Shown piece after piece: positions 1-64,000 of a DNA stretch of 64,000 nt (its first letter is position 1; every line of letters starts with the position of its first letter). This DNA comes from Monarcha castaneiventris obscurior (lineage: Eukaryota > Chordata > Aves > Passeriformes > Monarchidae). The translations under genes and the position numbers were made by a program. The stretch covers positions 1 to 64,000 of the forward strand of contig JAMPIT010000687.1 in the NCBI GenBank assembly GCA_026261815.1, written 5' to 3'. The notes below the pieces were generated by a model. The model worked only from the letters and a program-made list of their open reading frames with translations, did no database searches and had not been told where the DNA came from.

Positions 1-340
1 AAGGTCGGAGGGAGAGGAGGAGAAAAGAGCGGGGGGGAAGGGCGGAAAGAGAGGGGGAGGGAAGGAGAAAGGGAAAGGGAGGGAACACGAAGAGAGAGAA
101 AGTGGCGAAAGGAGAGTGCACGCGCCAGAGTTTGAAGAAAGAAACAGAGGTGAGTGGCCCACCATTTCACATTGGGAAATAACGCACAGGATCTCCGGGA
201 ACACCAATCGAGCGCACACAACGAGAAACGGTAGAGGCCCCCTCGAACAGGAGGGCCAAACGCAGTGTACTTCCTTCGTGAGTTCCAGACGTACAAGAGA
301 GAGGATAAAAGCATTCTTTTTTTTTTGTTTGTTTGACACC
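1..340. other. Unresolved low-complexity and unique sequence at left edge
   Basis: The first 120 bases are almost pure purine (GGGAGG/GAGAAA type). Bases 120-340 look unique and end in a T-rich run. On the gene model this is still EIF3I intron 4 sequence (minus strand). I looked for the next EIF3I exon and did not find it, and I recognise no gene here. Confidence 0.4.
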
Positions 341-351
341 AATTGCAACTA

Positions 352-438
352 GAGGCCACCCTGCACCCCCGAAGCCCCATCCAACCCAGCCTTGGGCACT
401 GCCAGGGATCCAGGGGCAGCCACAGCTGCTCTGGGAAT
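352..438 (-). repeat. CR1 LINE 3' fragment
   Basis: The plus strand reads as the reverse complement of the conserved avian CR1 3' region: CCATCCAACCCAGCCTTGGG followed by GCAGCCACAGCTGCTCTGGG. The fragment runs directly into the EIF3I minisatellite. Seen by recognition of the consensus only; no alignment was run. Confidence 0.6.
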
Positions 439-439
439 T

Positions 440-1112
440 CCTGGGCATGGCCTCACCTGTCCCAGAGTCCCACAGGGGGATTTGGGCATGGCCTCACCTG
501 TCTCACAGGGAATTTGGGCATGGCCTCACAGCCCCACAGGGAATTTGGGCATGGTCTCACCTCTCTCACAGCCCCACAGGGAATTTGGGCATGGTCTCAC
601 CTCTCTCACAGTCCCACAGGGGAATTTGGGCATGGCCTCCCCTGTCTCACAGGGAATTTGGGCATGGCCTCACCTCACAGTCTCACAGGGGGATTTGGGC
701 ATGGTCTCACAATCCCAGAGGAGAATTTGGGCATGGCCTCACCTGTCTCAGAGTCCCCCAGGAGAATTTGGGCATGGCCTCACCTGTCTCAGAGTCCCCC
801 AGGAGAATTTGGGCATGGCCTCACCTGTCCCACAGCCCCACAGGAGAATTTGGGCATGGCCTCACCTGTCTCAGAGTCCCACAGGGAATCTGGGCATGGC
901 CTCACCTGTCTCACAGCGAAATTTGGGGAATTTGGGCATGGCCTCACCTGTCCCACAGCCCCACAGGGGGATTTGGGCATGGCCTCACCTGTCCCACAGC
1001 CCCCCAGGGGAATTTGGGCATGGCCTCACAGTCCCACATGGAAATTTGGGGAACTTGGGCATGGCCTCACCTGTCTCACAGGGAAATTTGGGGAATTTGG
1101 GCATGGCCTCAC
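440..1112 (-). repeat. EIF3I intron 4 minisatellite carrying copies of the exon 4 donor
   Basis: About 18 tandem units of roughly 31-43 bp. On the minus strand a unit reads TGTGAGACAG, GTGAGGCCAT, GCCCAAATTCCC. The first part equals the last bases of EIF3I exon 4 and its 5' splice site (ACAG then GTGAGG); the rest is intron. The array starts directly at the true donor (1112/1111) and extends into the intron. Some units have lost the ACAG-GTG core, but most keep a complete donor. Unit length is not a constant multiple of three. Confidence 0.9.
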
Positions 1113-3449
1113 CTGTCTCACAGTCCCAGAGGCGGCAGCTGTTGTCTGCAGAGCCAGTGAGGACGTGCCTCGTGTCCCCTGGGTCACAGTTAGGGAATTT
1201 CAGCCCCAAATCCCACAGTCTGGGCACCCAGAGAATGTCCCCACACCCCATTAAAAAGGGAGTTTTTTTTCAGGCAAAATCCATCCCAAGGAAAGGAACT
1301 TCCATCATGGGCACGGAGCCTTTGCCAAACCCCATCATTTCCCCGTGGAATTTGAAGGAAAAAGCTCAGTTTGTTGCATTAAAAGAACTTTTCCACTGTT
1401 TTGCCCCTCAAGGTCTTCCCAAAAAATCCCCAGGGAAGCAGCACAAAGCATAACAAATCCAAAAATCCCATTTGGATGTTGTCCCAAATCTCGGGATGGG
1501 AGGAAAACCACCCAAAAGCAGGGAAAAAAAGAGGCAGGAGAAGAGTTAAAGGCTCCTCTGGGAGAGGAAAATTTTGGGAGGAAAACCACCCAAAATCAGG
1601 GAAAAAAAAGAGGCAGAAGAAGAGTTAAAGGCTCCTCTCAGAGAGGAAAATTTTGGGAGGAAAACCACCCAAAAGCAGGGGGAAAAAGAGGCAGAAAAAG
1701 AGTTAAAGAAAGCAAAACTTTGGGAGGAAAACCACCCAAAAGCAGGGAAAATAAGAGGCAGCAGGAGAGTTAAAGGCTCCTCTTGAAGAGGAAAATTTGG
1801 GGAGGAAAATCACCCAAAAGCTCCTCTGGAAAAGCAAAACTTTGGGAGGAAAACCACCCAAAAGCAGGAAAAAAAAGAGGCAGCAGGAGAGTTAAAGGCT
1901 CCTCTTGAAGAGGAAAATTTGGGGAGGAAAACCACCCAAAAGTAGGAAAAAAAGAGGCAGCAGGAGAGTTAAAGGCTCCTCTTGGAAAGCAAAACTTTGG
2001 GAGAAAAACTACCCAAAAGCAGGGAAAAAAAGAGGCAGCAGAAGAGTTAAAGAAAGCAAAAATTTGGGAGGAAAACCACCCAAAAGCAGGGAAAAAAAGA
2101 GGCAGCAAAAGAGTTAAAGGCTCCTCTCAAAGAGGAAAACCACACAAAATCAGGCAAAAAAGAGGCAGCAGGAGAGTTAAAGGCTCCTCTTGGAAAGCAA
2201 AACTTTGGGAGGAAAACCACCCAAAAGCAGGAAAAAAAAGAGGCAGCAGAAGAGTTAAAGAAAGCAAAAATCTGGGAGGAAAACCACCCAAAAGCTCCTC
2301 TGGAAAAGCAAAACTTTGGGAGGAAAACCACCCAAAAGCAGGGAAAAAAAGAGGCAGCAAAAGAGTTAAAGGCTCCTCTCAAAGAGGAAAACCACACAAA
2401 ATCAGGCAAAAAAGAGGCAGCAGGAGAGTTAAAGGCTCCTCTTGGAAAGCAAAACTTTGGGAGGAAAACCACCCAAAAGCAGGAAAAAAAAGAGGCAGCA
2501 GAAGAGTTAAAGGCTTCTCTCAGAGAGGAAAACTTTGGGAGGAAAACCTCCCAAAAGCAGGGAAAAAAGATGCAGCAGAAGAGTTAAAGAAAGCAAAACT
2601 TTGGGAGGAAAACCACCCAAAAGCAGGGAAAAAAGAGGCAGAAGAAGAGTTAAAGAAAGCAAAACTTTGGGAGGAAAACCACCCAAAAGCAGGGAAAATA
2701 AGAGGCAGCAGGAGAGTTAAAGGCTCCTCTTGAAGAGGAAAATTTGGGGAGGAAAACCACCCAAAATCAGGGAAAAAAAGAGGCAGCAGAAGAGTTAAAG
2801 GCTCCTCTGGGAGAGGAAAACTTTGGGAGGAAAATGACCCAAAATTAGGGGAAAAAAAAGAGGCAGAAGAAAAGTTAAAGGCTCTTCTCGAAAAGGAAAA
2901 CCTCGGAATGAATCAGCCACTAAAACACGGCACGAACCGGTTTTTGTTTTTTTGTGGGGGATCAAAGGATACAATCGGCATCCACACACCACACAGCTCC
3001 CGTGTGCCCATTGTAGGTTCCCAACCTCTCCCCGTTCACCGAGTACCACACGTTGACAATCTACGAGGAGGAAAAAAAATGATTAAAAATGAACAAACGC
3101 CATTAATTACACCGGGAAGGTTTCTCGAGGAGAACTCACGGGATCCTTAGCCACGGTAAACAGCAGGTCTCCCTCGCGGTTGTATTTGATCTGCGTGATG
3201 GAGCGCTCATGGCCCTGCAGCAGGATCGGCTTCTGCAATTAATTATTAAATAAAATTGGGTGAGGGAGAGGGGGATGAGGGGGAAGGGGCGAGCGCGGCC
3301 CCCGGTTCGGGGCTCCTGGGGCGCGGGGGGGCGGCTAAGCCGCCCCCCCGCGCCCCAGGAGCCCCGAACCGGGGGCGTAAAGTCGCCAAATCGCCGCTGG
3401 CCACCACAAATCGCGACCACCGCGGCCACAGCGACCTCGCTCTCACCAT
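1113..3449 (-). CDS. EIF3I: EIF3I, eukaryotic translation initiation factor 3 subunit I, exons 1-4 (partial)
   Basis: EIF3I is a WD40 beta-propeller subunit of the cytoplasmic eIF3 complex, which loads mRNA on the 40S ribosome. Coding exons on the minus strand: 3447-3449 (ATG alone, then GTGAGA), 3140-3232 ([14 protein letters not shown]... to AKDP), 2973-3060 ([14 protein letters not shown]... to CVDAD) and 1113-1178 ([22 protein letters not shown]). Phases join exactly (0, 0, 1, 1) and give the first 83 residues, covering the first WD repeat and most of the second; GH and WD dipeptides are visible. An initiator codon alone in exon 1, with KPILLQ opening exon 2, fits the family. The remaining exons lie left of base 1. 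The gene is head to head with TMEM234. Introns 3 and 4 are filled by minisatellites, and intron 4 copies the exon 4 donor many times. Identity is very secure; only the end is missing. Confidence 0.95.
1495..2895 (-). repeat. Minisatellite in EIF3I intron 3
   Basis: About 1.4 kb of tandem units. The plus-strand core is GGGAGGAAAACCACCCAAAA, then GCAGGGAAAAAAAGAGGCAG and a variable AGAGTTAAAGGCTCCTC segment. Units come in short and long forms, and blocks of several units are repeated as higher-order copies (for example 2100-2250 against 2345-2490). No splice site is included. Long open frames across it are a by-product of periodicity. Confidence 0.9.
3298..3376. repeat. Perfect 39-bp inverted repeat with one-base centre
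   Basis: The left arm 3298-3336 is the exact reverse complement of the right arm 3338-3376, with a single A at 3337 between them. The arms are GC-rich (begin GCCCCCGGTTCGGGGCTCC). The palindrome sits in EIF3I intron 1, about 70 bp from the coding part of exon 1 and close to the bidirectional promoter. It could form a cruciform or RNA hairpin, or it could be an assembly fold-back artefact. Confidence 0.85.
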
Positions 3450-3572
3450 GGCGGCCACGCTGAGGCCTGAGGGGGGCTGTCGCTTCCGGTTTGGAAGCGG
3501 AAACGCGTCACCGTCGCCATGGCGATGAGGGCGCGTTCTGGTTAAACACGGAAGTGAAGCGGCGTTGCCATG
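3450..3572. promoter_or_regulatory. Shared EIF3I / TMEM234 promoter, cut from TMEM234 by an ERV
   Basis: This is the GC-rich gap between the EIF3I start codon (3449, minus) and the point where TMEM234 began before the ERV insertion. It contains ETS-like motifs: CACGGAAGTG at about 3548-3557, and CTTCCGG at about 3483 (CCGGAAG on minus). There is no TATA box. This is typical of a bidirectional housekeeping promoter. The last five bases, 3568-3572 (CCATG), are the left copy of the ERV target-site duplication. Confidence 0.7.
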
Positions 3573-4900
3573 TGTAGCGGGTTGGGATTTGGTTCCCCGT
3601 ACGGGCCACCAATTCGTGCAGCAGTTTAAGGGTTAATTATGGGCATTAGCCCTCCCCGATGTCCTTGCAGCGAGATAAGCTAGTAGGAGGCAAAGCAAAG
3701 CAGGCACACAACTTGGAAGAAAAGGAAAAAAAAGTTTAATCAACACCCAGATGGTCGAGAACAGGACAAACTTGCAGAGCTTACCCCCCCGTTTTTCCCC
3801 TTCCCCAAAATCAGGATCACAGTCCTAGGAAAGGGGGGAACAGGGGTCTCCCCTTTCTTACGTGGGTTTCCAAACTGCCACTTTTTGCAGATTTGCTTAC
3901 AATTAAACATTCTCTGCTATAGTGTAACACATCTCTTTTCATGAGCCCTCACAGCCCTTGTGACTGCTAATACAACAGGCTTTTACATGGGTTTTTTAAG
4001 GATGAAACATTTTCCCTTTCGGCTTGAACGTACGGGTTTCCTCTGCCACCAGGTCTTGAAAGCCTTCCCCTGCTTTCACATATATCCTGGCATTCGGCAC
4101 TCTCCCCCCTCTTTACAAGCCATTTGATGAAAATGCCCATTCCCCCCATTTAACATGAACTGAAGAGACGTAACAGTTTGTAATAGTAATAGTTCATCCC
4201 ACAGCAAGGCAGGGAAATGTTTAAGCTTCCCGCCGAGTCACACACCCACAGCGCTGCCGCAGCAGCTCCGTCTCACGTGACTCCGCCTTCTCCTTCTCCC
4301 TGGCTCTGAAGCCGCCATGTCCAGGGTGTTTCCTCTGCCTCTCTGCAGGGTTTTCTTCTTGCCGCGCTGCACCGTGTAGAGAGAGGGTGTCTCTCCTGTT
4401 CGCCGCGAGGTTTATTAGCGGTCCGGAGGCTCTGTCTCGGACGACCTCAGCCCTGGAGCCCGCAGCCATCTCCACAGCTCGGGAGAACAATCCCCCTCCC
4501 ATAAATCTGAGTCCATGCTGCAGCAAGGAAATCCCCAGGGGGCAGAAGGCAGGAGCCCTGTCCCCAGCCGCGCAGGCCGGGGGAAGGGGGGCCACCCCTC
4601 CGTTTCTGCCGTCCCCGCACCGAGCCGGAACGGAAGGCCGGGGGCCCCCGAACTTTGCCCCCCTCCTCACCGGGAGGAGGAGGGGAGGAGGCAGGGGGCA
4701 GGGGCGCCCCGTCCCCGGGCCCACAGGCTCCAGGAACGGGGCCGACCCCTCTCCATTTTACTCCCGGCCCTCCACCCACCTGGGCCCGGAAAACCGCGAC
4801 TCCTAAAAACTCCCGCCCTCCGTGGGGCTTAAATATGTAAAATTTCGAGAAACGCATTGGCTTAGAGGGCTGTCTGTCAAGTTCTGACTAACCCACGACA
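3573..4900 (-). mobile_element. 3' LTR of the ERV (minus sense)
   Basis: 1328 bp. On the minus strand it opens TGTCGTGGGTTAGTC and closes CCCGCTACA. A TATA-like CATATTTAAG is near 4830 and an AATAAA in CCGCTAATAAACC near 4410, so U3, R and U5 are present. Open frames inside the LTR at about 4221-4857 are GC-rich chance frames, repeated in the other LTR at about 5836-6421. Confidence 0.9.
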
Positions 4901-4919
4901 ATCCACCCCTCGCTTCTCG
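4901..4919 (-). promoter_or_regulatory. Polypurine tract of the ERV
   Basis: On the minus strand CGAGAAGCGAGGGGTGGAT lies immediately 5' of the lower LTR. A purine-rich run directly before the 3' LTR is the expected plus-strand primer and fixes the element's sense as minus. Confidence 0.75.
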
Positions 4920-5115
4920 AAATTTATACATTTGCAAAGTTACAGCAGAAGGGAAAAAGAAAAACAAAGTTAAGGCAATTACATACATTTTCACCCCTAG
5001 ACACTTCACTACAGTTACAGTATACATTTCCACTACAAGTTCTACTTACTTATAACCTACAACTTGCTTTGCTTATCAGCTCCTAATTAACTTTATCTCA
5101 CAGCTTTCATCGGGT

Positions 5116-5133
5116 TGCCCGCATTCTCCACCA
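5116..5133 (-). promoter_or_regulatory. Primer binding site, tRNA-Ala type
   Basis: The minus strand reads TGGTGGAGAATGCGGGCA, 18 nt that are complementary to CCA plus the 3' acceptor/T-arm end of vertebrate tRNA-Ala(AGC) as I know it. It lies 4 nt from the end of the upper LTR, the canonical distance. This orients the element and identifies the upper LTR as the 5' LTR. Confidence 0.8.
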
Positions 5134-5137
5134 ATTT

Positions 5138-6463
5138 TGTAGCGGGTTGGATTTGGTTCCCCGTACGGGCCACCAATTCGTGCAGCAGTTTAAGGGTTAA
5201 TTATGGGCATTAGCCCTCCCCGATGTCCTTGCAGCGAGATAAGCTAGTAGGAGGCAAAGCAAAGCAGGCACACAACTTGGAAGAAAAGGAAAAAAAAGTT
5301 TAATCAACACCCAGATGGTCGAGAACAGGACAAACTTGCAGAGCTTACCCCCCCGTTTTTCCCCTTCCCCAAAATCAGGATCACAGTCCTAGGAAAGGGG
5401 GAAACAGGGGTCTCCCCTTTCTTACGTGGGTTTCCAAACTGCCACTTTTCGCAGATTTGCTTACAATTAAACATTCTCTGCTACAGTGTAACACATCTCT
5501 TTTCATGAGCCCTCACAGCCCTTGTGACTGCTAATACAACAGGCGTTTACATGGGTTTTTTAAGGATGAAACATTTTCCCTTTCGGCTTGAACGTAAGGG
5601 TTTCCTCTGCCACCAGGTCTTGAAAGCCTTCCCCTGCTTTCATATATATCCTGGCATTCGGCACTCTTCCCCCTCTTTACAAGCCATTTGATGAAAATGC
5701 CCATTCCCCCATTTAACATGAACTGAAGAGACGTAACAGTTTGTAATATTAATAGTTCATCCCACAGCAAGGCAGGGAAATGTTTAAGCTTCCCGCCGAG
5801 TCACACACCCACAGCGCTGCCGCAGCAGCTCCGTCTCACGTGACTCCGCCTTCTCCTTCTCCCTGGCTCTGAAGCCCGCCCTGTCCAGGGTGTTTCCTCT
5901 GCCTCTCTGCAGGGTTTTCTTCTTGCCGCGCTGCACCGTGTAGAGAGAGGGTGTCTCTCCTGTTCGCCGCGAGGTTTATTAGCGGTCCGGAGGCTCTGTC
6001 TCGGACGACCTCAGCCCTGGAGCCCGCAGCTATCTCCACAGCTCGGGAGAACAATCCCCCTCCCATAAATCTGAGTCCATGCTGCAGCAAGGAAATCCCC
6101 AGGGGGCAGAGGGCAGGAGCCCTGTCCCCAGCCGCGCAGGCCGGGGGAAGGGGGGCCACCCCTCCGTTTCTGCCGTCCCCGCACCGAGCCGGAACGGAAG
6201 GCCGGGGGCCCCCGAACTTTGCCCCCCTCCTCACCGGGAGGAGGAGGGGAGGAGGCAGGGGGCAGGGGCGCCCCGTCCCCGGGCCCACAGGCTCCAGGAA
6301 CGGGGCCGACCCCTCTCCATTTTACTCCCGGCCCTCCACCCACCTGGGCCCGGAAAACCGCGACTCCTAAAAACTCCCGCCCTCCGTGGGGCTTAAATAT
6401 GTAAAATTTCGAGAAACGCATTGGCTTAGAGGGCTGTCTGTCAAGTTCTGACTAACCCACGCA
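5138..6463 (-). mobile_element. 5' LTR of the ERV (minus sense)
   Basis: 1326 bp, co-linear with 3573-4900. Differences are single substitutions and one-base indels (for example near 5151, 5397, 5450, 5545, 5873 and 6041). The end next to TMEM234 has TGCGTGGG where the other LTR has TGTCGTGGG, a one-base loss. It abuts the CCATG that contains the TMEM234 initiator. Confidence 0.9.
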
Positions 6464-6465
6464 CC

Positions 6466-11082
<4,617 letters not shown>

Positions 11083-17578: not shown

Positions 17579-22330
<4,752 letters not shown>

Positions 22331-30245: not shown

Positions 30246-30509
30246 GCAGGTGTGGCCTCGCTCCTCAGCCCACGGGCGCGGCGGCGGCCCGGCGCATCGG
30301 CGGGGCGGGGGGTGCCGGTGCCCGGCCGGGGCCGCTGCGGTTGCGGCGGTTCGGTTCCGGCGGTACCGGCGCTGAGGGAGCGGCTCGGGCCGGGGCCTCC
30401 AACGGCCGCGCCTGCGCCCGCCCGCGCCGCCGCCCAATCAGCGCCCGCCGCGCGGGGGCTGCCGGGAAGCACCGGGGAGACGCGGCAACGGCGGCGGGAG
30501 GCGCTGAGG

Positions 30510-30676
30510 GAACTACAGCTCCCGGCATGCTCCGCGAGAGAGCGGCCATAGGAACTACAGCTCCCGGCGTGCTCCGCGAGAGAGCGGCCATAGGAACTAC
30601 AGCTCCCGGCGTGCTCCGCGAGAGAGCGGCCATAGGAACTACAGCTCCCGGCATGCTCCGCGCGGGGGTCGCCATA
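30510..30676. promoter_or_regulatory. Four tandem ZNF143-like sites, 42-bp unit
   Basis: The unit AACTACAGCTCCCGGCATGC, then TCCGCGAGAGAGCGGCCATAGG, starts at 30511, 30553, 30595 and 30637. The ACTACA-CTCCC-CATGC core is the known long motif bound by ZNF143 (Staf) at vertebrate promoters; a GCGGCCAT YY1-like half is repeated with it. Four near-perfect tandem copies imply recent amplification of a regulatory element. Confidence 0.75.
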
Positions 30677-30715
30677 GCAACTAGGGCCTGCAAGGAGAAG
30701 AGGTGGAAGAGGAGG

Positions 30716-32968: not shown

Positions 32969-51660
<18,692 letters not shown>

Positions 51661-51849: not shown

Positions 51850-52965
51850 GCTCGGGTTCTGCCGGCTCCGTTCTGTTCCCTCTGTTCTGTTCCCTCTGTT
51901 CTGTCTCCGTTCTGTTCCCTCTGTTCTGGCTCTGTTCTGTTCCCTCTGTTCTGTTCCTTCTGTTCTATCTCCGTTCTGTTCCCTCTGTTCTGTCACCTCG
52001 GGTTCTGCCGGCTCCGTTCTGTTCCCTCTGTTCTGGCTCTGTTCTGCCCCCTCGGGTTCTGCCGGCTCCGTTCTGTTCCCTCTGTTCTGTTCCTTCTGTT
52101 CTATCTCCGTTCTGTTCCCTCTGTTCTGTTCCTTCTGTTCTATCTCCGTTCTGTTCCCTCTGTTCTGGCTCTGTTCTGCCCCCTCGGGTCCTGCCGGCTC
52201 CGTTCTGTTCCCTCTGTTCTGTTCCTTCTGTTCTATCTCCGTTCTGTTCCCTCTGTTCTGTTCCTTCTGTTCTATCTCCGTTCTGTTCCCTCTGTTCTGG
52301 CTCTGTTCTGTTCCCTCTGTTCTGTTCCTTCTGTTCTGTCTCCGTTCTGTTCCCTCTGTTCTGTTCCTTCTGTTCTATCTCCGTTCTGTTCCCTCTGTTC
52401 TGGCTCTGTTCTGCCCCCTCGGGTTCTGCCGGCTCCGTTCTGTTCCCTCTGTTCTGTTCCTTCTGTTCTGTCACCTCGGGTCCTGCCGGCTCCGTTCTGT
52501 TCCCTCTGTTCTGTCACCTCGGGTTCTGCCGGCTCCGTTCTGTTCCCTCTGTTCTGTTCCTTCTGTTCTGCCCCCTCGGGCTCTGCCAGCTCCGTTCTGT
52601 TCCCTCTGTTCTGTCTCTGTTCTGTCCCCTCTGTTCTGGCTCTGTTCTGTCACCTCGGGTTCTGCCAGCTCCGTTCTGTTCCCTCTGTTCTGTCCCTGTT
52701 CTGTCCCCTCGGGTTCTGTCCCCTCTGTTCTGCCTCTGTTCTGTCCCCTCTGTTCTGCCTCTGTTCTGTCCCCTCGGGTTCTGCCACCTCTGTCCTGTCC
52801 CGTTTGGTCACCTCTGTTCTGTCTCTGTTCTGTCCCATTCTGTCACCCGTATTCTGTCCCCTCTGTTCTGCCTCTGTTCTGCCACCTCTGCTACCTCTGT
52901 TCTATCCCCTCTGTTCTGTCCCCTCTGTTCTGCCACTTGTGTCCCTTCACTCGTGTTCTGCCACC
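51850..52965. repeat. TTCTGTTCCCTCTG minisatellite between KPNA6 and BSDC1
   Basis: About 1.1 kb of GTTCTGTTCCCTCTGTTCTG units, with higher-order modules containing CACCTCGGGTTCTGCCGGCT. It decays toward 53060 (CACTCGTGTCCCATC). Pyrimidine-rich on plus, purine-rich on minus. It lies upstream of KPNA6 and beyond the BSDC1 3' end, at the point where gene order departs from human. Confidence 0.92.
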
Positions 52966-53521
52966 TCTGTCTCTTTCTGTCCCCTCAGTTCTGCCACTCG
53001 TGTCCCATCACTCCTGTGCCATCACTCTCGTCACATCATTTGTGTCCCATCATTCATTTTCTGTCACTCGTGCCCCAGCACTCAAATCCCAGCCCCTCCT
53101 CCGTGTCCCGTTCCTTTGGCTGCAGGGAAGGAAAAGAGCTGCTGGAGCCCTGCATTCCCCCACAAGGAGCATCCCTTGGGAATGGTGCCAGGCTGTAAGG
53201 AACCCTTGGGACAAATTCCCTCCAGTGCCAGCAGCTCAGTGGTGTCATGGAATCATGGAATATCCCAGATTGGAAGGGATTGCTGGATGGAGTTTTCCAT
53301 CTATCCAGGCTCGTGGGTGATGTGCCAGGCAGAGACAAGCCTGGCTCACACTGGGTGGTTTTTTGGGTTCACTCAAAGCCCTGAAAAGTGGGGGACAGAG
53401 CTCGGAGGAGCCTGAGGCATTGGGGGTCCCTTTCCTTTTCCTGAGGGAGATGGGAGGAAAGAAAAATTGTCTGGCAGAGGAAATGAGAACACCCGGGACT
53501 GGCAGAGACTCTGAGAATTCC

Positions 53522-53527
53522 TTTAAT
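53522..53527 (-). terminator. Candidate BSDC1 polyadenylation signal
   Basis: ATTAAA on the minus strand about 1.7 kb after the BSDC1 stop. The interval 53510-55192 has no other gene that I recognise and is read as BSDC1 3' UTR. A CR1-like trace lies at 53245-53300 beyond it. Confidence 0.4.
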
Positions 53528-55192
53528 TGCTGTTAACTGCAAGTCTGTAAAAGGTTTGGAGAAAGTCTTCGTTACAAAACTACCCAGCTGTTAGAATTGC
53601 TCCTGGTTTGTCACCCCAGCTAGAAAAGGCTCAGGGAGATGTGGAATAGCTCAAGAACAGAGAATATTGCACAACCAACCCAACGGTTAATTCGACTAAA
53701 GAAGAAAAGAAAAGTGACACAGACGCTGCAGCCTCGAGCTCTGCTGTGGCATCAGCTGGGACTCACAGCAGCCCCAGGTCCCCACTGGTGTCCCCTGTGT
53801 CCCCTGCCCACCACAGCCTGAGGCAGGACAAGGTGAGGCTCTGCTGGACCCAGCACACCCCAAGCAGGAGCTGAGCTGTCCCCGATCCCCTCGGCAGGAC
53901 AGGGATGCTCCCACCAGGAGTCACCCCAAAGGAGGAAAAACCAACCCTAAAACCTCAACTCTTGTAAGTGCACCTCGTTTAGTGCTGTCCAAACCCAGCA
54001 GGAAAACCCCCAGCCCCAGTGGAGCAGCCCTGGAAGGGGCAGGACAAAGGCAGAAAGTGTCACCCCACCACCCCAAAGGCCAGGACCCCCCCTTGGGGTA
54101 ACTGTGCATCAGCAACATCTTGTGTCATGACAAGGAAACGGCCCCAAAAAAAGGCTGTGGGGCCAAAGGAAGGATCACAAGCAGTCACGGGGGCTTAAGT
54201 GAAGGAACCCAAGTGAGCACAGCAAAGCTCGTGGTGGCTGCAGGGCCTAGCACGGGGGCAGAGGGGGATGGCCTCAGCCAACAGGGACCACCCACATTTG
54301 GGGGCTTCTCTCTCCCCAGGCTGGGAGAGGGAATGGCCAAGCAGAGGTTGAAGTGGTCAGCGGGGCTTTGCAAGGGCTGGACTGGGCACCACAACCAGGG
54401 GTTCTGTACCAGGGTGACCCAAACCTCTGCCAGCCCAGCAGGGCTCAAGTAAGAGCAAGCCACGAGGATTTTGCTTGGAGAACTTAACTAGAAAGACACA
54501 AAACCCAGTGCAGGAAGAAGGTGGTGCAGCTGCAAAGGGGAGGGGGGGAGCAGCAGGCCTTGGCTCTTTGAGGAACTGCTGGAAACGGGAGTTTCCATGA
54601 GAAAAAGCTTCCAAGACAAAAAGCCAGGCAGAAGCTCAGGGTTTGGCAGGGAGTTTGGCTCCTTCCAGGGTCAAAGCCACAAGCCAAGTGCCTTTTTCTG
54701 CAGCACCTCCAGCCCCCAGGCCCTCCCTGGGTGTCGCTTTCCAGGTGGGAATTGTGGAGCAGCGAGCGGAGCAGGCACAGCCACATCCAGGAGCCTCTCA
54801 GCTGTAGGTTAAATGTGCACACACAAGCAAGGAAGGAGCCAGCCTGGCAGCCTGGCAGCCCCCAGCACACCCTGGCAGGGCTCTGAGTGCCCAGCTGGCC
54901 CCAGGGACCCCTCACTCTGCCTCTTCCCGACACGTCGGGGTCAGTTTTGGCTTTGCCAGTCTCTAGGACCTGTGGAGAAGTCGGGCTCCCGTGTGCCAGT
55001 GATCTCCTGCTTCCTTCCTCCTGGATCTGAAGGGGTCACTTGAGTTGCCCACAGGTTTTAGCAGGAATGGAACTCCTCCAGCCTGGAACTGCAATCCCCA
55101 GCACAGTCACACACAAAGGAACAGCCGGTCCGTGATTGAATTCACATTCGATGGTGGAAATGAGCCTGTGACACACGCTGGAAGCAGCTGCT

Positions 55193-58100
55193 TTACTCCC
55201 AGTCTTCCCACTCTTCATCTTCCAGCTGCAAACAGGAGGAAGTTTGTTTCTGAGCTGTTCCTGAGCTGTTTCTGAGCTGTTTTCAACAGTTTGTTTCTCT
55301 AACTCAACAGTTCCTCCTGCCCAGGGCACCTGACTCGGGACGAAGCCCCACATATCCTCATGCTCCCACCCCTTCCCAACAGGGATTTGCCTGCTCTGTT
55401 CCCCTTGGGAAACCTCAGCACTCTCAGCCCCTCTCTGCTCATGCAGCATCACCCCGAGGGGTTGGTGATGCTTTTGGGGAGCACTTTTGCCTCTCCTGAC
55501 TCACCTCCCCAGACATTTCCACCTTGGAGAGTGCCAGCTGCACCTCCTCTTCGGTCATGTCCAGATCAAAGTCCTTTTCCCAGTCCTCGCTGATATCTGT
55601 GCTGGAGCCTGGAAGCACAAACATCCCCACTGAGCCACCAGAGCTGCTCCCAAAGCCCTGCAATTCCCAAGGCTCAGAGCCACCAGGGAAAGCCTCCACA
55701 TTCCCAAGCACAGCTCCCTGACAGAGATGGGATGGACTGAGCTTGTTTCCCTGAGGGAACAAGTGAGAGAGGTGGATGCTCAAACGTTTTCTCCTCTGGC
55801 CTGGGAGAATTTGGACGTGTCAGCTTCCAGTGAGACAGAAAATGCAGCAGGTAAAGAATGACAGGAGGGACTTAGATATGGGGACTGTCATTGTCCCACT
55901 CCTAGGGCTGAGAGAGGGAAGGAATCACCACATTCCCTGCACAGAGCACAGCCTTTCCTGGCATCCAAGGACCAAAGGCCTGTTCTGCTCATCCAGCAGA
56001 CCTTTGATTTCTTTCCCTTTCCTCTCCCCCATCCCCATAAACCCAGAGCCCTTTCCCTAAGAGCTGCCTCCCCCAGAAGGCTCCCAGGCCCCACACAAAC
56101 CTTTCTTGCCGTTGTTGGAGGGTGTGGATTTGCCACTATCCGAGTTGAGCTCGAAGACTCTCAGATCTGTGGGCCCTTCCTCTCTCAGAGTCTCTGTCCT
56201 GGCCTGGCCTTTGCTCTCCAGCTCTCTGAGCTCTGTTCCAGCTGCTGGCTCCGAGGATGCTGCTGATTCCTGGGCAGGTGCAGAAGGCTGAGCAGCTTCT
56301 GGGGGCTTTGGCAGGGAGCTCTGCTCTTCCAAGGTGGCCTCCACCAGCCTCTGGGAGAGGTCCCCGGTGCCCGTGGCTGGAGCTGCAGTCTGTAGCTGGG
56401 TGGCAGGCACAGAGGCAGGGTTTGCAATCTGAGTCACAAGGGACACGCTCTCGCTGCTCTCCGAGGGGCTCTGCTCCACTGGGACCAGCTCTGGGGGCAG
56501 CACAGCCCAGCTCTCCCCAGAGGGACCCTGGGCAGCAGTGGGGTGCTTTCCCTCTGGGGTTGCCAGGGTGGGTTCTTTCTGTGCTGCTCCTGGAAATGTG
56601 ATGTTTGCACAAGGCAGGGGGGACATCCCCAAGAACTCCTCTGTAGGGAGGCAGAAGAGAAGCGAGAGATGTTTCAGCAAGTGCAGCAGCAGCAGGGCTG
56701 GGAGCTGCGTTTCACAGAATCAAGGAATGGCCTGAGCTGGGAGGGAGCCACGGGGATCATGGAGTCCAACCCCTGGCCCTGCACAGACACCCCAACAATC
56801 CCCAGCTCTGTGCATCCCTGAGAGCATTGTCCTGCAGCTCTGGCAGCTTTGGGGCCGTGCCCATTCCCTGGGGAGCCTGGGCAGTGCCCCAGCACCCTCT
56901 GTGTAAAGAGCATTTTTACATCCAACCTAAATTATATCCAACCCAAACCACCCCAGCACAGCTCCAGCCATTCCCTCAGATCCCAGAGATTTGCTTACAC
57001 TGAGATCAGAGCTGCCCCTTCACTGCCCCTTGTGATTTGTGGGAGTGAGGAGGATGATGAGCTCTCCACAAAACCTCTCAGAGCCCCAAAACCTGACCCA
57101 CCTTCATCCTCCTCCCAGCCTGGCTCCTCTTGGTGCATGCTCTGCTCTGCTCGCTGCTTCAGAGCCTCCCTCCGGGCTTCGTCCTGCAGGGAATTCCACA
57201 TCAGCAGCTGCTCACATCCCCAATCCCTTTCTTTCCCCAGGCATTTTGGCATCACTGACTCCAAGAAGGGCAGCCCAGATCCCTGTTTTCCTGGAAAAAA
57301 CACCCCCATGGAGCCCCCCCAGCCTGACCCACCTGCTCCAGGCGATGCACTTTGTAGAAGTAGCGTTGCCAGAACTCCGAGTGGGAAACAGCCACAGGCA
57401 CCTGGGAAAGGGATCAGGAAAGGGATGAGCCCCTCAGGAGGAGACCTGCAGCTGCTGCTGTGCCCCTCTCTCCTCCCAAAGCTTGCAGCTGCCATTTTAT
57501 TGCAATTATTTTACCATCATTGACCACGCAAGCACAGTTGTTTCTGTTCCAGCTGCAGGGATTAAACAGCTCAGGGCTTCCCTGCAGCATTCCCCAAGTC
57601 AGGAATTGCCCAGGCAGGGCCTCACCATTTTGGTGTAGAGTGCCCTGATGGAAGGGCTGGTGGCCAGCAGCTCTGCAATCTCCCCTTTCTTCTCCTCCAG
57701 GTTGAACTGAGCAAGCCAGGCCTCAAGCAGCTCAGCAGGGCCTGTTTGGGATGAGCACAGGGATAACAACCCTCGGCATAAAAGGGCAGGAAGACTTTGA
57801 GAAGTTTCACTGGAAAGATGCTGGGGTAAAGGAGGAGGGAGACACAGGGCTCAGAGCTCCTCTGCCAGCCCAAGGCCACGTGGCACCAGTTTAAACTGGG
57901 CCAGGAAACTCAGCCTAAGCTGGTCCTTGATGTAAGAGCCAGATCTGCTCTCCATAGCTGGCCCCAGCTACAGCCAAACCAGCCCTGCTGGCCAAAGGCT
58001 TCAGGGAATTCCAGCTGACCCTCAGACCCCCCAGGGGCAGCACCCTGGACCCCCCTGGGCCCCCCTGGAGCCTCCCATACCATCAGGCTCGTTGCAGTAG

Positions 58101-61031
58101 GTGGCTGGGTCGGACTGGAGGCTGTAGAGACGAGCCTGAAGGAGACACACGGGGACAGCAGTCAGGGGAGGGCCAGCAGCAGAGCCAGGGAACAGGGCTG
58201 AGGATTCCCCACCCCAGAGCTTCCCCCAGGAGTGGGACACTCACCTTGGCACTGTCGTAGGGCTCCGTGGTACCTGAGGGTGTTGCCATCAGTGTTATCA
58301 CGTCACAGTCAATGGTCTTGTCAGGTGAGGGAGCAAAGGTGTCCGAGATGACCCCCAGGAAGTCTGACAGCCCCTTCCTCACCTTTTCCGTGGCACCTGA
58401 GGAACCTTCTGTCCTCTTCAAGGGAAGAGGCAGCACAGTGTCAGTAACAGCCCAGAGTTTCTGGGTAGGATCCTTAAGGAAGCAGGATCTCTGCCCTCAG
58501 AAGAGTGCTACAGAGGGGACTGGGCTGAAAGGATGCAGTGGGAGGCACCTGCCTGAGGTGGGGAACTGAGCTGAGGCTCTGTGGGAAGGCCACAGCCAGG
58601 TTTGGGGTTGGCCCAGCCCAGGGCTGAGGCTCATGGATGGTGTGGAGAGCCCCTGTCACCCCACAGTGACACCACCAGAGTCCCACCTGCTCAGAGCAAG
58701 GGGAGAGGCAACCACAGGAACCCCCCTCTGCTCATCTGCAAGGGCACTGAGAGACAGGACAAGGGGGAACGGCCTCAAGCTGAAGGAAGGAGGGCTTAGA
58801 TGGGATATTGGGAAGAAATTCTCCCCCAGGAGGGTGGTGGGATGGAATTCCCAGAGAAGCTGTGGCTGCCCCATCCCTGGAAATGTTCCAGGCCAGGTTG
58901 GATGAGGCTTGGGGCAATCTGGGATGGTGGAAAATGTCCCTGCCCATGGCACTGGATGATCTGAAGCTCTCCCAGCCCCTACTCACTGCCAGCTTGTCCT
59001 TGACCACGCTGGCCGTGGCAGCAATGGTGCAGGCTGTGTCGTGCTGCACCACCTGGGTGAACTCAGCCAGGTCCCTCTTCATGAATTCCAAAGCCTCTGA
59101 GGACTGCAAGGAGACAGCAGATGGATTGTCCAGGTTTTTGGTTCTCCCACAAAGCCAGGGTCGCTCCCTGAATGTTATAAAAACTCAAGTGTGGGAGTTT
59201 AGCTCAGCTGAGCCCTCACCCCAAGCTGGGCAATGCATGAGACCAGAATAACCCGAATAAAAGCAGCGTTTGCTCTGCCCAAAACACATTCCAGGAGGTT
59301 TTTAAGCCAAGGATAGAAAAACACAGGTTGGGAAAAGCCTGGTTTTAAGTTTTGTGTGTAATTAACACAAGCAATGCTGCCACAGGCAGGAAATGACAAA
59401 CCACGGAGCCATGCTGGAACCACAACCCCCCCATGCTCAGGGGGTGATTTTCACATGACAGAGCCCAGCATGACCCAGGGCTCGCTCATCCACAGGAAAA
59501 ACATCCCGATCCCACTCTGGGGACAGCGGGGCCGCCCCACAAGCCCCGCCCGGCCCCGCCCGGCCCCGCCCGGCGCCGGCCGTTCCCACCTTCTCCTTGA
59601 CGGCCTGGTAGCTCTGCTGGAGCCAGCTCCGCCACCAGCCGCCGTCCTCCCTGCGCGGGAGGGACACGGCGGCGTCAGGGCACACACACAGCCCGAGCCC
59701 GAGCCCGAGCCCCAAGCCAGGCCCAGAGCCGCGTCCCGGCCCCAGAGCCAACCCCAGAGCCCAAATCCCGCCCCAACCAACCCCAGAGCCCAAATCCCGG
59801 CCCCAGAGCCCAAACCCCCCCAACCAACCCCAGAGCCCAAATCCCGGCCCCAGAGCCACCCCAGAGCCCAGATCCTGATCCCAGATCCCAACCCCAGATC
59901 CTGATCCCAGATCCCAACCCCAGATCCCAGATTCAGACCTCGACACCCCAAAGCCCAGATCCCAAATCCAGACCGCAGGATCCCAGACCTCAGATCCCAG
60001 CCTCACACACAGAGCCCAGATCCTGATCCCAGATCCCAACCCCAGATCCCAGATTCAGACCCCGACACCCCAAACCCCAGACCCAAATCCAGACCCAGAC
60101 CGCAGACCAGACCCAGATCCCGACCTCACACACAGACCCCAGAGCCCAGATCCTGATCCCAGATCCCAACCCCAGATCCTGATCCCAGATTCCAGATTCA
60201 GATCCCAGATTCAGACCCCGACACCCCAAAGCCCAGATCCCAAATCCAGACCCAGACCCAACCTGATTCTGATCCCAGACCCCACACATAAACCCCAGAT
60301 CCCGATCCCGATCCCAGATTCAGACCCCGACACCCAAACCCAGACCCAAACCAGCCCCCCACCGCAGGATCCCAGACCTCAGATCCCAGCCTCACACACA
60401 GAGCCCAGATCCTGATCCCAGATCCCAACCCCAGATCCCAGATTCAGACCCCGACACCCCAAACCCCAGATCCCAAATCCAGACCCAGACCGCAGATCCA
60501 GACCCAGATCCCGACCTCACACACAGACCCCAGAGCCCAGATCCTGATCCCAGATCCCAACCCCAGATCCTGATCCCAGATTCCAGATTCAGATCCCAGA
60601 TTCGGACCCCGACACCCCAAAGCCCAGATCCCAAATCCAGACCCAGACCCAGACCTGATTCTGATCCCAGACCCCACATCCCGACCTCACACATAAACCC
60701 CAGATCCCGATCCCGATCCCAGATTCAGACCCCGACACCCCGAACCCAGCCCCGCCCGGGCCCCGCTGCGCTCTCCGGGCTCCACCGCCCCGGCCCCGCT
60801 CCCCGTGCCGCTCCCGCCCGTTCCCGGCCCGCTCCCAGCCCCGTTCCCGGCCCCGTTCCCAGCCCCGCTCCCTCCCGGTGCCGCTCCCTGTCCCGTTCCC
60901 GGCCCCATTCCCGGCCCCGTTCCCGGCCCCGCTCCCCGTGCCGCTCCCAGTCCCGTTCCGGGCCCCGTTCCCGGCCCCGCTCCCTCCCGGTGCCGCCGCC
61001 CCCGGCCCAGCCCCGCTCACCCCTCCGCCAT
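55193..61031 (-). CDS. BSDC1: BSDC1, BSD domain-containing protein 1
   Basis: BSDC1 has one BSD domain, a three-helix module with a conserved Phe-Trp pair; its cellular role is poorly known. Minus-strand exons: 61021-61031 (MAEG), 59590-59650 (EDGGWWRSWLQQSYQAVKEK), 58987-59103, 58245-58415 (VRKGLSDFLGVISDTFAPSP), 58081-58135, 57626-57741, 57333-57401, 57102-57183, 56101-56640, 55505-55608 (DISEDWEKDFDLDMTEEEVQ) and 55193-55225 (LEDEEWEDWE, stop). Phases close to 1359 nt, 452 residues (human 430). The BSD domain is about residues 139-198, with the hallmark in HSEFWQRYFYKVH. Exon 9 is long, Ser/Pro/Glu-rich and the fastest changing. Its donor (AAAG then GTTTGT) is weak, but the next exon continues the conserved sequence in phase. 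Intron 1 carries two arrays. Head to head with ZBTB8B. Confidence 0.95.
56710..56945 (-). repeat. CR1 LINE fragment in BSDC1 intron
   Basis: CACAGAATCAAGGAATGGCC, GGATCATGGAGTCCAACCCC and GTAAAGAGCATTTTTACATC are reverse-complement CR1 sequence of an older subfamily. It lies just upstream of exon 9 on the transcript. Confidence 0.75.
58776..58975 (+). repeat. CR1 LINE 3' end in BSDC1 intron
   Basis: GGGATATTGGGAAGAAATTC, CCAGAGAAGCTGTGGCTGCC and GGCACTGGATGATCTGAAG: CR1 3' end in plus sense, ending about 12 bp from the donor of the exon at 58987-59103. Confidence 0.85.
59690..60772 (-). repeat. CCCAGATCCTGATCCCAGAT minisatellite in BSDC1 intron 1
   Basis: About 1.1 kb. Short units (CCCAGATCCTGATCCCAGAT, CAGATTCAGACCCCGACACC) are organised in higher-order blocks of roughly 250-300 bp that repeat with CTCACACACAGAGCCCAGAT. 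It starts with CCCGAGCCCGAGCC and CCCAGAGCCCAAATCC forms nearer exon 2. No splice site is copied. Confidence 0.92.
60778..61012 (-). repeat. GTTCCCGGCCCC minisatellite in BSDC1 intron 1
   Basis: GC-rich units of about 12 bp (CCCGTTCCCGGC, CCGCTCCCAGC), ending within 20 bp of the exon 1 donor. It is likely part of the CpG island of the divergent promoter. Confidence 0.85.
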
Positions 61032-61196
61032 CTTGCCCGTGTGACGTCACCAATATTTACCGACCCCTCACCCCGCGGGCCCCGCCCCGCACCGGGGCCC
61101 TCCTGACGTCACTTCCTGCCCCCGCCCCGGGGGCGCGGCCCGGCTACGGCGGCCGGGAGGGACCGGGAGCGGGGCCGGGAGCGGGGCCGGGCGGAG
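61032..61196. promoter_or_regulatory. BSDC1 / ZBTB8B bidirectional promoter and ZBTB8B exon 1
   Basis: Two CRE palindromes TGACGTCA, at 61042-61049 and 61104-61111, the second fused to an ETS-like ACTTCCT. CpG-rich between them. A donor GCGGAG then GTGAGC at 61196/61197 suggests a ZBTB8B non-coding first exon ending at 61196. AAGATGGCGGA at the BSDC1 start is YY1-like. Confidence 0.65.
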
Positions 61197-61424
61197 GTGA
61201 GCGATGGGCACCGAGGGGCACCGAGGGGCACCGAGCGCTCCCCGGGGAGAGCAGGGATGCGTTCCGGGCCACCCTGCTACCGGGAAGGGCGGTGCTTGCA
61301 GCAGGGAGGGGTCCCGGTACCGGGAGGTCGGTCCTTGGCGCGGCCGGGGATCCCGGGACCGGGCAGGGCGGTGCTGGGCGTTCTGGGGGATGCTGGTAGT
61401 GGGGAGGATGGTCCTTGGTGTGCC

Positions 61425-61712
61425 GGGATATCCCGTGGGTACGGGGCAGGACGGAGCCCCGGTACCGGGCAGGACGGACCCTGGAGGGGTGTGAGAGCCC
61501 TGGTACCGGGCGGGACGGACCCTGCAGGGGTGTGAGAGCCCCGGTACCGGGCGGGACGGACCCTGGAGGGGTGTGAGAGCCCCGGTACCGGGCAGGACGG
61601 ACCCTGGAGGGGTGTGAGAGCCCCGGTACCGGGCAGGACGGACCCTGGAGGGGTGTGAGAGCCCCGGTACCGGGCGGGACGGACCCTGGAGGGGTGTGGG
61701 ACCCTCGGTACC
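61425..61712 (+). repeat. ZBTB8B intron 1 minisatellite A
   Basis: Six to seven units of about 41 bp: GGTACCGGGCGGGACGGACC, then CTGGAGGGGTGTGAGAGCCCC. Each carries a KpnI-type GGTACC. Confidence 0.9.
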
Positions 61713-61779
61713 GAGCAGGACAGTCCTTGCCGGTGTCTCCGGGGCGCTGGCGCGGCTCCCCCTGTCCCCGGTAGCCCCG

Positions 61780-62166
61780 GTGTCCCCGGTACCGGGAGGG
61801 GTGGCAGCGGCGGTGTCCCCGGTACCGGGAGGGGTGGCTGTGGCAGTGTCCCCCCCCGGTGTCCCCGGTACCGGGAGGGGGTGGCCATGGCGGTGTCCCC
61901 GGTACCGGGAGGGGGTGGCAGCGGCAGTGTCCCCGGTACCGGGGGGTGGCACGGCGGTGTCCCCACCACCAGTGTCCCGGTACCGGGAGGGGTGGCTGTG
62001 GCAGTGTCCCCGGTAGCCCCGGTGTCCCGGTACCGGGAGGGGGTGGCTGTGGCGGTGTCCCCGGTACCGGGAGGGGTGGCTGTGGCAGTGTCCCCGGTGT
62101 CCCCGGTACCGGGAGGGGGTGGCTGTGGCAGTGTCCCCGGTGTCCCCGGTACCGGGAGGGGTCCCC
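61780..62166 (+). repeat. ZBTB8B intron 1 minisatellite B
   Basis: Units of about 32-38 bp: CCCCGGTACCGGGAGGGGTG, then GCTGTGGCAGTGTCC. It shares the GGTACCGGG core with array A. The array ends about 40 bp before the acceptor of the coding exon. Confidence 0.9.
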
Positions 62167-62208
62167 GCGGGTGCCGGTGCTGACGCTCGCTGTGTTGCCG
62201 GCAGAGCC

Positions 62209-63097
62209 ATGGAGGTGCAGTCGTACTACACCAAGCTGCTGGGGGAGCTGAACGAGCAGCGCAAGCGGGATTTCTTCTGCGACTGCAGCATCATCGTGGA
62301 GGGCAGGATCTTCAAAGCGCACAAGAACATCCTGTTCGCCAACAGCGGCTACTTCCGAGCGCTGCTCATCCACTACATCCAGGACAGCGGGCGCCACAGC
62401 ACGGCCTCGCTGGACATCGTCACCTCCGAGGCTTTCTCCATCATCCTGGATTTCCTCTACTCCGGGAAGCTGGATCTGTGCGGGGAGAACGTGATCGAGG
62501 TGATGTCCGCCGCCAGCTACCTGCAAATGACCGACGTGGTGAATTTCTGTAAAACTTACATCAGGTCCTCCTTGGATATCTGTAGGAAAATGGAGAGGGA
62601 AGCTGCTTTTTACCAGGCTGACAGCGGCAGCTCAGCCAGGGAGGGAACCTCCAAGAGCCAGTGCTCCACCTCCGTGTCCTCCCTGCAGGAGAAGATTCCA
62701 GAATGCCAGAGGGAACCTCCCTGTGGGGATTGCAGCAGTTGCCACCCTTTGGAGCTGGTGGTCAGGGACCCCCTGAGCAGCGAGTCCCCTGATGAAACCT
62801 CGTTGCCCAAAGGGCTACAACCCAAAGTGGAATTTGACCCCGATGAGGTGGAGGTGGGCGAGCCTCAGTACCCAGCACCCATCTCCCTGGAGCAGATGGA
62901 AGAGGGGCAGCCCGTGGAGCTGGCCTGCAATAATTATCACATGAAGCAGTTTTTGGAGGCTCTGCTACGTAACAGCTCGGCCCCGAGGAAGGAGGATGTG
63001 GTGCATCACTTTGTCCGGGGATTTGAGGGTAGGGCTGAGGATGCAGCCATGAGTTCCATGATGGACATTCACAGCGACTGGTATGGTGAGGACACAG
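62209..63097 (+). CDS. ZBTB8B: ZBTB8B, zinc finger and BTB domain-containing 8B, first coding exon (partial)
   Basis: A BTB/POZ zinc-finger protein, presumed nuclear transcription regulator. The exon is 62205-63097, with acceptor TTGCCGGCAG and donor ACAG then GTGAGAGG (phase 1), and encodes residues 1-296. The BTB domain is about residues 10-125: FFCDCSIIVEGRIFKAHKNI, LFANSGYFRALL, FLYSGKLDLCGENVIEVMSA. The match to ZBTB8B is near identity over the BTB domain and the later WYGED block, and clearly weaker to ZBTB8A. A run of alanines seen in human after the BTB domain is missing. The two C2H2 fingers and the C-terminus are encoded right of the window. Reading through the donor adds 37 codons and a stop at 63208-63210, followed at once by AATAAA. 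Confidence 0.95.
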
Positions 63098-63210
63098 GTG
63101 AGAGGACTCGAGGGGGTGCAGGATGTGCAGTTGGAGGAGGGAACAGCTTTGGGACACTCCTTTTGTTACTCTTGTTCAGGAATATCTTGCTGAATCTTTT
63201 GGCACAGTGA

Positions 63211-63217
63211 AATAAAC
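63211..63217 (+). terminator. Intronic polyadenylation signal in ZBTB8B
   Basis: AATAAA directly after the read-through stop codon, followed within 15 bp by a TTTGTTGTG GU-rich element. It could terminate a BTB-only transcript. More AATAAA signals occur near 63342, 63756 and 63966. Confidence 0.4.
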
Positions 63218-64000
63218 TCTTTGTTGTGCACTTGAAAAAGCAGCTGTGCTCGTTTGTTCGCTGCAGCTCGTGGGAGGTGAGTATTCCTGACAGCTTTGGA
63301 GCAGCAACTGGAGCTCCCAAATCACCCCCAAACTCTCTGCTTTAATAAAAAAACTCACTGGGACCTCGTGGAATGGCAGGTGCAATTTTTTGAAAAGAAT
63401 TTTTCCCTCATGATGGTTGTAAAGAGCAATCCAACAGGAGCTGGGCTGCCACACGACCTGCTGCAGCAGGAGCTCATCCCACTGGAGCTGCTCCTGTTTG
63501 GAATTTCAGAGGGCAGGAATCAGTTTTATCCAACACTGAGGGATCCCTGCAAGTCCTTTAGGAGCACTGAAAGCTTTAAACTCGGTGGTGTAGCATAAAG
63601 ATGAGGCTTTTTTTGCTTTTCAGCTGCTGCTCAGTGAGGTTCTGCTCCTGCCCCCAGCCCAGCACCAGTTGGAATATCTCAGGAATATTTCCTGGCAGCA
63701 GTGTCAGGCACTTGGAGAAGAAGAAAATCCCATGTGCATTTCTCCTGATGTGGACAATAAAGATTGGGGCATTTAATCTGGTTTTTTGCTAAGTGCTTTG
63801 TCCAAAGAGCCTTGTGAAGACAGGAGGTGGCTCTGACAAGCTGCAAGTGCCACGGGTGCTGAGGATGTGACAAAAGCCCCAGTGCCCTGGGGCTGGCACT
63901 GAGTGGAGCCAGCGAGTTTATTTTCATGTCATCTCCAGCTCAAGCTGCCTGTGTGGTCTCAAAGCCAATAAAACTGACAAATCCTCTCCCTGCTTTCCAA
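63218..64000 (+). other. ZBTB8B intron 2 (start)
   Basis: Moderate-GC sequence without a recognised exon or array. It has several AATAAA signals (about 63342, 63756, 63966), so part of it could be 3' UTR of a short isoform. The zinc-finger exons of ZBTB8B are not reached. Confidence 0.5.

What the first reader, a model, noticed from the sequence alone, without database searches (positions are those of the whole stretch)
1..64000. Recurrent tandem arrays whose unit contains a real splice junction
Four independent arrays (EIF3I exon 4 donor, TMEM234 exon 3 donor, CCDC28B exon 3 acceptor, KPNA6 terminal acceptor) and one two-copy duplication (KPNA6 internal donor) all have one edge 10-40 nt inside an exon and the rest in the intron, so each copy reproduces an authentic splice site. 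Units differ in sequence and length (about 31-43, 54, 41, 185 and 227 bp), so they arose separately. Several other arrays in the window do not touch splice sites, which makes chance possible. Even so, four in six intron-rich genes suggests a mechanism: exon edges seeding slippage or break repair, tolerance of duplicated splice sites, or a role in splice-site choice.
Basis: partly seen in the sequence, partly recalled or inferred. Interest (0 to 1): 0.9.

Follow-up and report, generated by a model that had tools for sequence, protein, structure and literature searches.

The report
Minisatellites that copy splice sites
In a gene-dense stretch of an animal genome (likely a bird), five tandem repeats each copy a real exon-intron junction, and two of them differ in length between two assembled contigs; they likely arose by ordinary repeat slippage, and a similar repeat is already known in a human gene.

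Summary
In detail: four arrays (EIF3I exon 4 donor, TMEM234 exon 3 donor, CCDC28B exon 3 acceptor, KPNA6 last acceptor) and one two-copy duplication (KPNA6 donor) each repeat 10-40 nt of coding exon plus its GT or AG. New here: a second contig (C580, likely the other allele) carries the EIF3I and TMEM234 arrays at the same exon edges but with other lengths (about 1,240 vs 715 nt; 24.1 vs 20.1 copies), so these two are real, length-variable minisatellites. Enrichment is not established. Arrays cover 31% of the window but only 5 of 73 mapped splice sites. A seeding model expects 2.0 to 4.4 junction-spanning arrays, depending on how the unit is defined (P for 5 or more: 0.04 to 0.46, before allowing for post-hoc choice); the next 80 kb has 0 of 40 sites. 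The best inner copies equal or outscore the authentic site, and inner copies are not preferentially broken. The kind is known: human ABCA7 has a 25-bp VNTR that includes an exon donor, and a site one unit downstream is used in some transcripts. Best reading: chance-seeded minisatellites in repeat-dense DNA, tolerated because one whole exon with its own splice site always remains.

The parts
421..1135 (-). EIF3I exon 4 donor minisatellite, unit mostly about 41 nt (copies 31-42 nt), about 17-18 copies; 11 carry CAG|GTGAGG, the authentic one included
1113..1178 (-). EIF3I exon 4 (coding), donor after 1113
   Evidence: donor set by hand because exon 5 lies outside the window
8463..8529 (+). TMEM234 exon 3 (coding), donor after 8529
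8517..9653 (+). TMEM234 exon 3 donor minisatellite, 54-nt unit, 20.1 copies, 19 donors of the authentic type counting the authentic one; 93% of the intron
18673..18815 (-). CCDC28B exon 3 (coding), acceptor before 18815
18806..20006 (-). CCDC28B exon 3 acceptor minisatellite, 41-nt unit, 29 copies, CCCTCAG|GGAAGG
32972..33153 (-). KPNA6 last coding exon, acceptor before 33153
33134..34791 (-). KPNA6 last-exon acceptor array, copies of 176-194 nt, about 9 copies, AAAG|GTTTGG
38199..38362 (-). KPNA6 exon 8 of the alignment (coding), donor after 38199
37802..38238 (-). KPNA6 two-copy tandem duplication (210 and 227 nt) that repeats 40 nt of exon and its donor AAT|GTGAGT

Best explanation
These are minisatellites (four arrays and one two-copy duplication) whose unit straddles a real splice junction; each likely began as a chance tandem duplication by slippage or short-homology repair across an exon edge, and would be tolerated because one complete exon with its own splice site always remains at the array's edge. 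Shown: the unit includes the last or first 10-40 nt of a coding exon plus the GT or AG. Shown: the copy joined to the full exon is the 5'-most one for donors and the 3'-most one for acceptors, so the exon itself is left whole. Shown: arrays make up 71-93% of three of the introns. Shown: the EIF3I and TMEM234 arrays have different lengths in a second contig. Inferred: that contig is the other allele; the outermost copy is the one mainly used; occasional use of an inner copy would lengthen the exon by whole units, in frame for the first five TMEM234 inner donors on this contig. The window lies in a repeat-dense contig end (31% arrays against 6% in the next 80 kb), so a few such hits are expected there without any attraction of arrays to exon edges.
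For: Array and exon coordinates. 5 of 73 splice sites in arrays although 31.4% of bases are. Seed-model expectation 2.0-4.4. 0 of 40 sites in the next 80 kb at 6.2% array content. No spanning array identified at 60 myosin and kinesin exon loci, 197.7 kb, 4.2% array, nor at 10 matches in five kinase loci. Inner copies keep splice cores at these mean identities against the rest of the unit: EIF3I 0.918 vs 0.769, TMEM234 0.957 vs 0.960, CCDC28B 0.989 vs 0.897, KPNA6 last acceptor 0.966 vs 0.939; shares of same-length stretches at least as conserved are 29%, 65%, 4.9% and 61%. Second contig: same exon edges, other lengths, flank identity 96.6%, 99.05% and 100%. TTGGC occurs at both founder ends in TMEM234. 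The KPNA6 last-exon and CCDC28B units were found only at this locus (that search skips simple repeats).
Against: With the smallest-unit definition 5 is borderline (P=0.039-0.050), the exon-avoiding overlay null gives P=0.033, and a pooled 144-kb seed test gave 1.49 expected, P(>=5)=0.013, so a modest excess remains possible. The samples outside the window hold few arrays and have little power. Clear microhomology was seen for TMEM234 only. The best inner copies score as high as or higher than the authentic sites (KPNA6 last acceptor 10.0 vs up to 13.7; CCDC28B 6.4 vs up to 8.1), so why the authentic copy should win is not explained by its own sequence. The intron-side flank of the EIF3I array on C580 gave no match here, which weakens the allele reading.
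Confidence: 0.72

Rival explanations
1. Exon edges actively seed arrays: splice-site sequence or exon-edge chromatin promotes slippage or break repair, giving more junction-spanning arrays than chance.
For: 5 observed against 2.1 expected with the smallest-unit null (P=0.050; 0.039 for units of 30 nt or more), 1.87 with the overlay null (P=0.033), and 1.49 in the pooled 144-kb test (P=0.013).
Against: Expectation rises to 2.9-4.4 with other unit definitions; unmapped exons would raise it further; strong depletion under circular shift; 0 of 40 sites in the next 80 kb; no spanning array identified in the other exon loci read; chosen after the fact.
Confidence: 0.15
2. The arrays are kept because extra splice sites tune exon length or expression, a splice-site-number polymorphism as at human ABCA7.
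For: Length differs between the two contigs; many inner sites are intact and strong; in ABCA7 a donor one unit downstream is used and VNTR length affects splicing (PMC5954066, passages read).
Against: Splice cores are not clearly better conserved than the rest of the unit in 3 of 4 arrays; most EIF3I inner donors give a frameshift or a stop; no RNA evidence.
Confidence: 0.1
3. The arrays are assembly artefacts.
For: The window is at a contig end in repeat-dense DNA.
Against: The EIF3I and TMEM234 arrays are in a second contig with different internal copy order; copies within arrays differ from one another.
Confidence: 0.03

Closest known systems
Human ABCA7 intron 18 VNTR (PMC5954066; passages read)
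   Same: Minisatellite array beside an exon, including the exon's donor site; many near-identical donors; length-variable between alleles
   Different: There the array starts at the GT itself (25-bp unit, about 12 to about 427 units) and effects on splicing are measured; here 10-40 nt of exon are in the unit, acceptors are involved too, and nothing is known about splicing
Internal tandem repeats at exon-intron boundaries in human segmental duplications (PMC2812944; passages read)
   Same: Variable minisatellites at exon-intron boundaries; 27 intron modifications reported, most of them also with a transcript that retains the repeat
   Different: Those were found among recent paralogs and interpreted as forming novel introns; here the introns are taken as pre-existing
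Intron gain by tandem duplication across an intron-exon boundary, potato RdRp (PMC4974935; passages read)
   Same: A tandem duplication that includes the 3' part of an intron and the 5' part of the next exon, copying the acceptor
   Different: There the duplication made a new intron; here the copies appear to lie inside an existing intron and, in four of five features, are many

Membership tests
Splice-site-containing VNTR (ABCA7 type) | Tandem array of a minisatellite-size unit next to an exon | tested here: met
   four arrays (the KPNA6 unit of 176-194 nt is long for a minisatellite); the KPNA6 donor feature has two copies only
Splice-site-containing VNTR (ABCA7 type) | Unit includes the exon's authentic splice site | tested here: met
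   five of five
Splice-site-containing VNTR (ABCA7 type) | Copy number varies between alleles | tested here: inconclusive
   Length differs for EIF3I and TMEM234 between C537 and C580, but that C580 is the other allele is inferred; the CCDC28B and KPNA6 last-exon units were found at one place only; the KPNA6 donor duplication was not tested
Splice-site-containing VNTR (ABCA7 type) | Inner copies are used, or array length changes splicing | not testable with these tools
   No RNA data
Introner elements (dispersed intron-generating elements; definition recalled) | Same unit dispersed at many genes | tested here: not met
   Four of five units searched; matches only at this locus or at C580; the search skips simple repeats and scores best candidates only; the KPNA6 donor unit was not searched
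Tandem-duplication intron gain (Rogers model) | A new intron inside a formerly continuous exon | not tested
   Intron positions were not compared with another species here

The most novel reading that the evidence does not exclude
Repeat-dense bird microchromosome ends carry a recurrent class of splice-site minisatellites, seeded at exon edges more often than chance, that give each allele its own number of near-identical donors or acceptors (19 against 24 for TMEM234, 11 against 19 for EIF3I by the motif counts; 19 against 22 and 11 against 16 by the stricter motifs) and so act as a natural dial of splice-site number; in TMEM234 inner donors would add 18-residue units in frame.
Probability: 0.13. 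Interest if true: 0.72.

Novelty: new member of a known kind. Interest (0 to 1): 0.42.

Why it matters
If inner copies are used at all, these arrays are a natural form of a duplicated-splice-site experiment, with up to about two dozen near-identical sites in a row and, for two genes, two contigs of different number. They would show how the spliceosome picks one among equal sites, and how introns in gene-dense repeat-rich DNA grow without harming exons. As it stands, the main lesson is that duplication across a junction leaves the exon whole, so such arrays should be expected wherever minisatellites are dense.

Tried and rejected
Rejected: dispersed element carrying splice sites (units are local); assembly artefact for two arrays (second contig). 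The pooled 144-kb seed test (expected 1.49, P(>=5)=0.013) is against my reading; I give it less weight because it mixes a 31% and a 6% array region. Three single-stretch rows (expected 0.87, 1.24 and 0.59 with the best-scoring unit; observed 3, 2 and 0) test the parts, not the sum; their sum is 2.7. Pfam scans of parts without a mapped gene (53.0-62.0 kb plus strand; 10.8-18.6 kb minus strand) gave no family. Recalled TMEM39B gave no match in the window and KHDRBS1 only low-complexity ones; recalled AK2, HPCA, FNDC5 and AZIN2 gave no match at E 1e-4 in 144 kb. The mapped site list is incomplete (for example UTR exons, and coding parts of EIF3I, TMEM234, CCDC28B and TXLNA that did not align). 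For the myosin and kinesin loci exon edges were only the edges of Pfam matches, several loci come from one gene cluster, and 4 of 60 had an array at or near the match: L006 (ends 36 nt before it), L066 (one overlaps its start by 6 nt, one begins 39 nt after it), L008 and L052 (inside matches that contain stop codons, so an exon edge there was not resolved). At four of ten kinase matches an array lies within 60 nt; none copies the junction, though one in L074 ends at the acceptor and one in L075 starts about 7 nt after a donor. Paper searches: no listed title describes such arrays in birds; that covers only the listings of an open library.

Full report
What was checked. Tandem Repeats Finder reports 170 rows, and its listing says 20 more are not shown; rerun in a script and merged with abutting duplications they make 58 arrays covering 31.4% of the window, against 6.2% of the next 80 kb. 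Genes: EIF3I (-), TMEM234 (+), CCDC28B (-), TXLNA (-), KPNA6 (-), BSDC1 (-), plus an open frame at 62.2 kb that I take from recall to be a BTB protein like ZBTB8. Exons were mapped with my own spliced aligner and human proteins recalled from memory: 113 internal splice sites over 144 kb, 73 in the window; GT/AG holds by construction except for the hand-set EIF3I donor, which is GT as well.

Anatomy. In each of the five features the unit contains the last (donor) or first (acceptor) 10-40 nt of a coding exon and the neighbouring intron. The exonic parts encode residues matching recalled human proteins (for example LAST of TMEM234, LWDCETG of EIF3I, LDKIEF of KPNA6), so the exon is the source. 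Units differ fully between genes, so the origins are separate. The arrays fill 93% of TMEM234 intron 3, 90% of CCDC28B intron 2 (merged arrays) and 71% of the last KPNA6 intron. TTGGC stands at both ends of the TMEM234 founder unit, as slippage or short-homology repair would leave; no clear match was noted for the others.

Chance or not. Circular shifts of the sites against the arrays give a mean of 22 of 73 sites inside arrays; observed 5, P(null<=5)=0.0017: arrays avoid splice sites and exons. Placing whole arrays at random with at most 45 nt of exon overlap gives 1.87, P(>=5)=0.033 (300 placements). The null I find most realistic collapses each array to one unit and places that seed anywhere that leaves the exon intact: 2.11 expected with the smallest unit, 2.94 with the best-scoring, 4.44 with the longest; P(>=5) 0.050, 0.159 and 0.463; over nine window settings the lowest P is 0.039. 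A pooled test over 144 kb gave 1.49 and P=0.013. Missing exons would raise the expectation. The next 80 kb: 0 of 40 sites, 0.18 expected. Sixty 3-kb loci around myosin and kinesin exons (30 of 113 and 30 of 36 matches listed) show no array that spans an exon edge by 8 nt or more as judged from Pfam match ends; four had an array at or near the match and two of those are unresolved. Ten kinase-exon matches in five further loci show none that copies the junction; at four of them an array lies within 60 nt, one ending at an acceptor (L074) and one starting about 7 nt after a donor (L075). So a mild excess is possible but not shown, and the finding was picked because it was noticed.

A second copy of the locus. 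The TMEM234 unit also matches C580:188369-189684 and the EIF3I unit C580:183238-184473. C580 is 196,391 bp long, so its end seems to overlap the start of C537. Flanks are 96.6% (TMEM234 5' side with exon 3), 99.05% (3' side with exon 4) and 100% (EIF3I exon 4 side) identical; the intron-side EIF3I flank read (about 130 nt) gave no match. The TMEM234 array has 24.1 copies there against 20.1 here and starts at the same exon base. The EIF3I array is about 1,240 nt there (TRF) against 715 here, and TRF places its start 10 nt inside the exon there and 20 nt here. By exact copy types the TMEM234 arrays share most of the intron-side end while the exon-side part differs; EIF3I shares three types. EIF3I has 11 exact CAGGTGAGG donors here and 19 there, authentic one included. 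I infer that C580 is the other allele. This makes these two arrays real and length-variable. The CCDC28B and KPNA6 last-exon units matched only C537.

Inner sites. Scored with matrices built from the session's own sites, the best inner sites equal the authentic donors of EIF3I (11.8), TMEM234 (10.4) and KPNA6 exon 8 (10.0) and exceed the authentic acceptors of KPNA6 (10.0 vs up to 13.7) and CCDC28B (6.4 vs up to 8.1). Splice cores are conserved like the rest of the unit in EIF3I, TMEM234 and the KPNA6 acceptor (29%, 65% and 61% of equal stretches are at least as conserved) and more in CCDC28B (4.9%). So inner sites are neither disabled as a class nor clearly kept. In TMEM234 the first five inner donors on C537 (54 to 270 nt downstream) are in frame and stop-free; on C580 the first is 53 nt away and out of frame. 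Retaining the whole TMEM234 intron stays open until 9828 but leaves the normal frame of exon 4. No RNA was available.

How it most likely works. A tandem duplication that spans a donor leaves the complete exon and its donor at the 5' edge; one that spans an acceptor leaves the acceptor and complete exon at the 3' edge. Either way the mRNA can stay unchanged, so such duplications should be about as acceptable as intronic ones, and expansion into an array follows as for any minisatellite. That the outermost copy is preferred (by exon definition and exonic enhancers that are not duplicated) is inference. Reed and Maniatis's work on duplicated splice sites is recalled, not read.

Known kind. Human ABCA7 has a 25-bp VNTR that includes the exon 18 donor; use of a donor one unit downstream and length effects on splicing are reported (PMC5954066, passages). 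Variable minisatellites at exon-intron boundaries are reported for human segmental duplications (PMC2812944, passages), and a duplication across an intron-exon boundary for a potato gene (PMC4974935, passages). In chicken, minisatellites and tandem arrays are more abundant on some chromosomes, among them 16, 21-23 and 25-28 (PMC4992247, passages). Hence: new members of a known kind, of interest as a cluster with two length variants, not evidence of a new mechanism.

Noticed in passing
C580:179800-181700 (L077, bases 435-1558): Matches window 8243-7120 in inverted orientation at 97.5% identity, although the TMEM234 array itself lies further on in C580; a local inverted copy or a dispersed repeat.
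   Followed up: no
window 1135-8517 against C580:184473-188369: The interval between the two donor arrays is 7.4 kb on C537 but 3.9 kb on C580; the window copy contains a roughly 1.56-kb tandem duplication (same open frames at 3636 and 5200).
   Followed up: partly
window 8463-9828: All three forward frames are open through the TMEM234 array; exon 3 read on into the intron stays open for 455 codons.
   Followed up: partly
window 30509-30683: Four copies of a 42-nt unit with ACTACAGCTCCCGGCATGC between TXLNA and KPNA6; the motif resembles, from recall, a ZNF143 promoter site.
   Followed up: no
L074 about base 1273; L075 about base 758: Arrays that abut a kinase-exon acceptor (L074) and begin about 7 nt after a donor (L075) without copying the junction.
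   Followed up: partly
G000: Dozens of similar kinase-domain matches (profile positions about 45-160) on many contigs: a large amplification of a kinase exon, perhaps PIM-like (recalled).
   Followed up: no
C537:64001-144000: Array content falls from 31% in the window to 6% right after it; the repeat-dense part is the contig end.
   Followed up: yes
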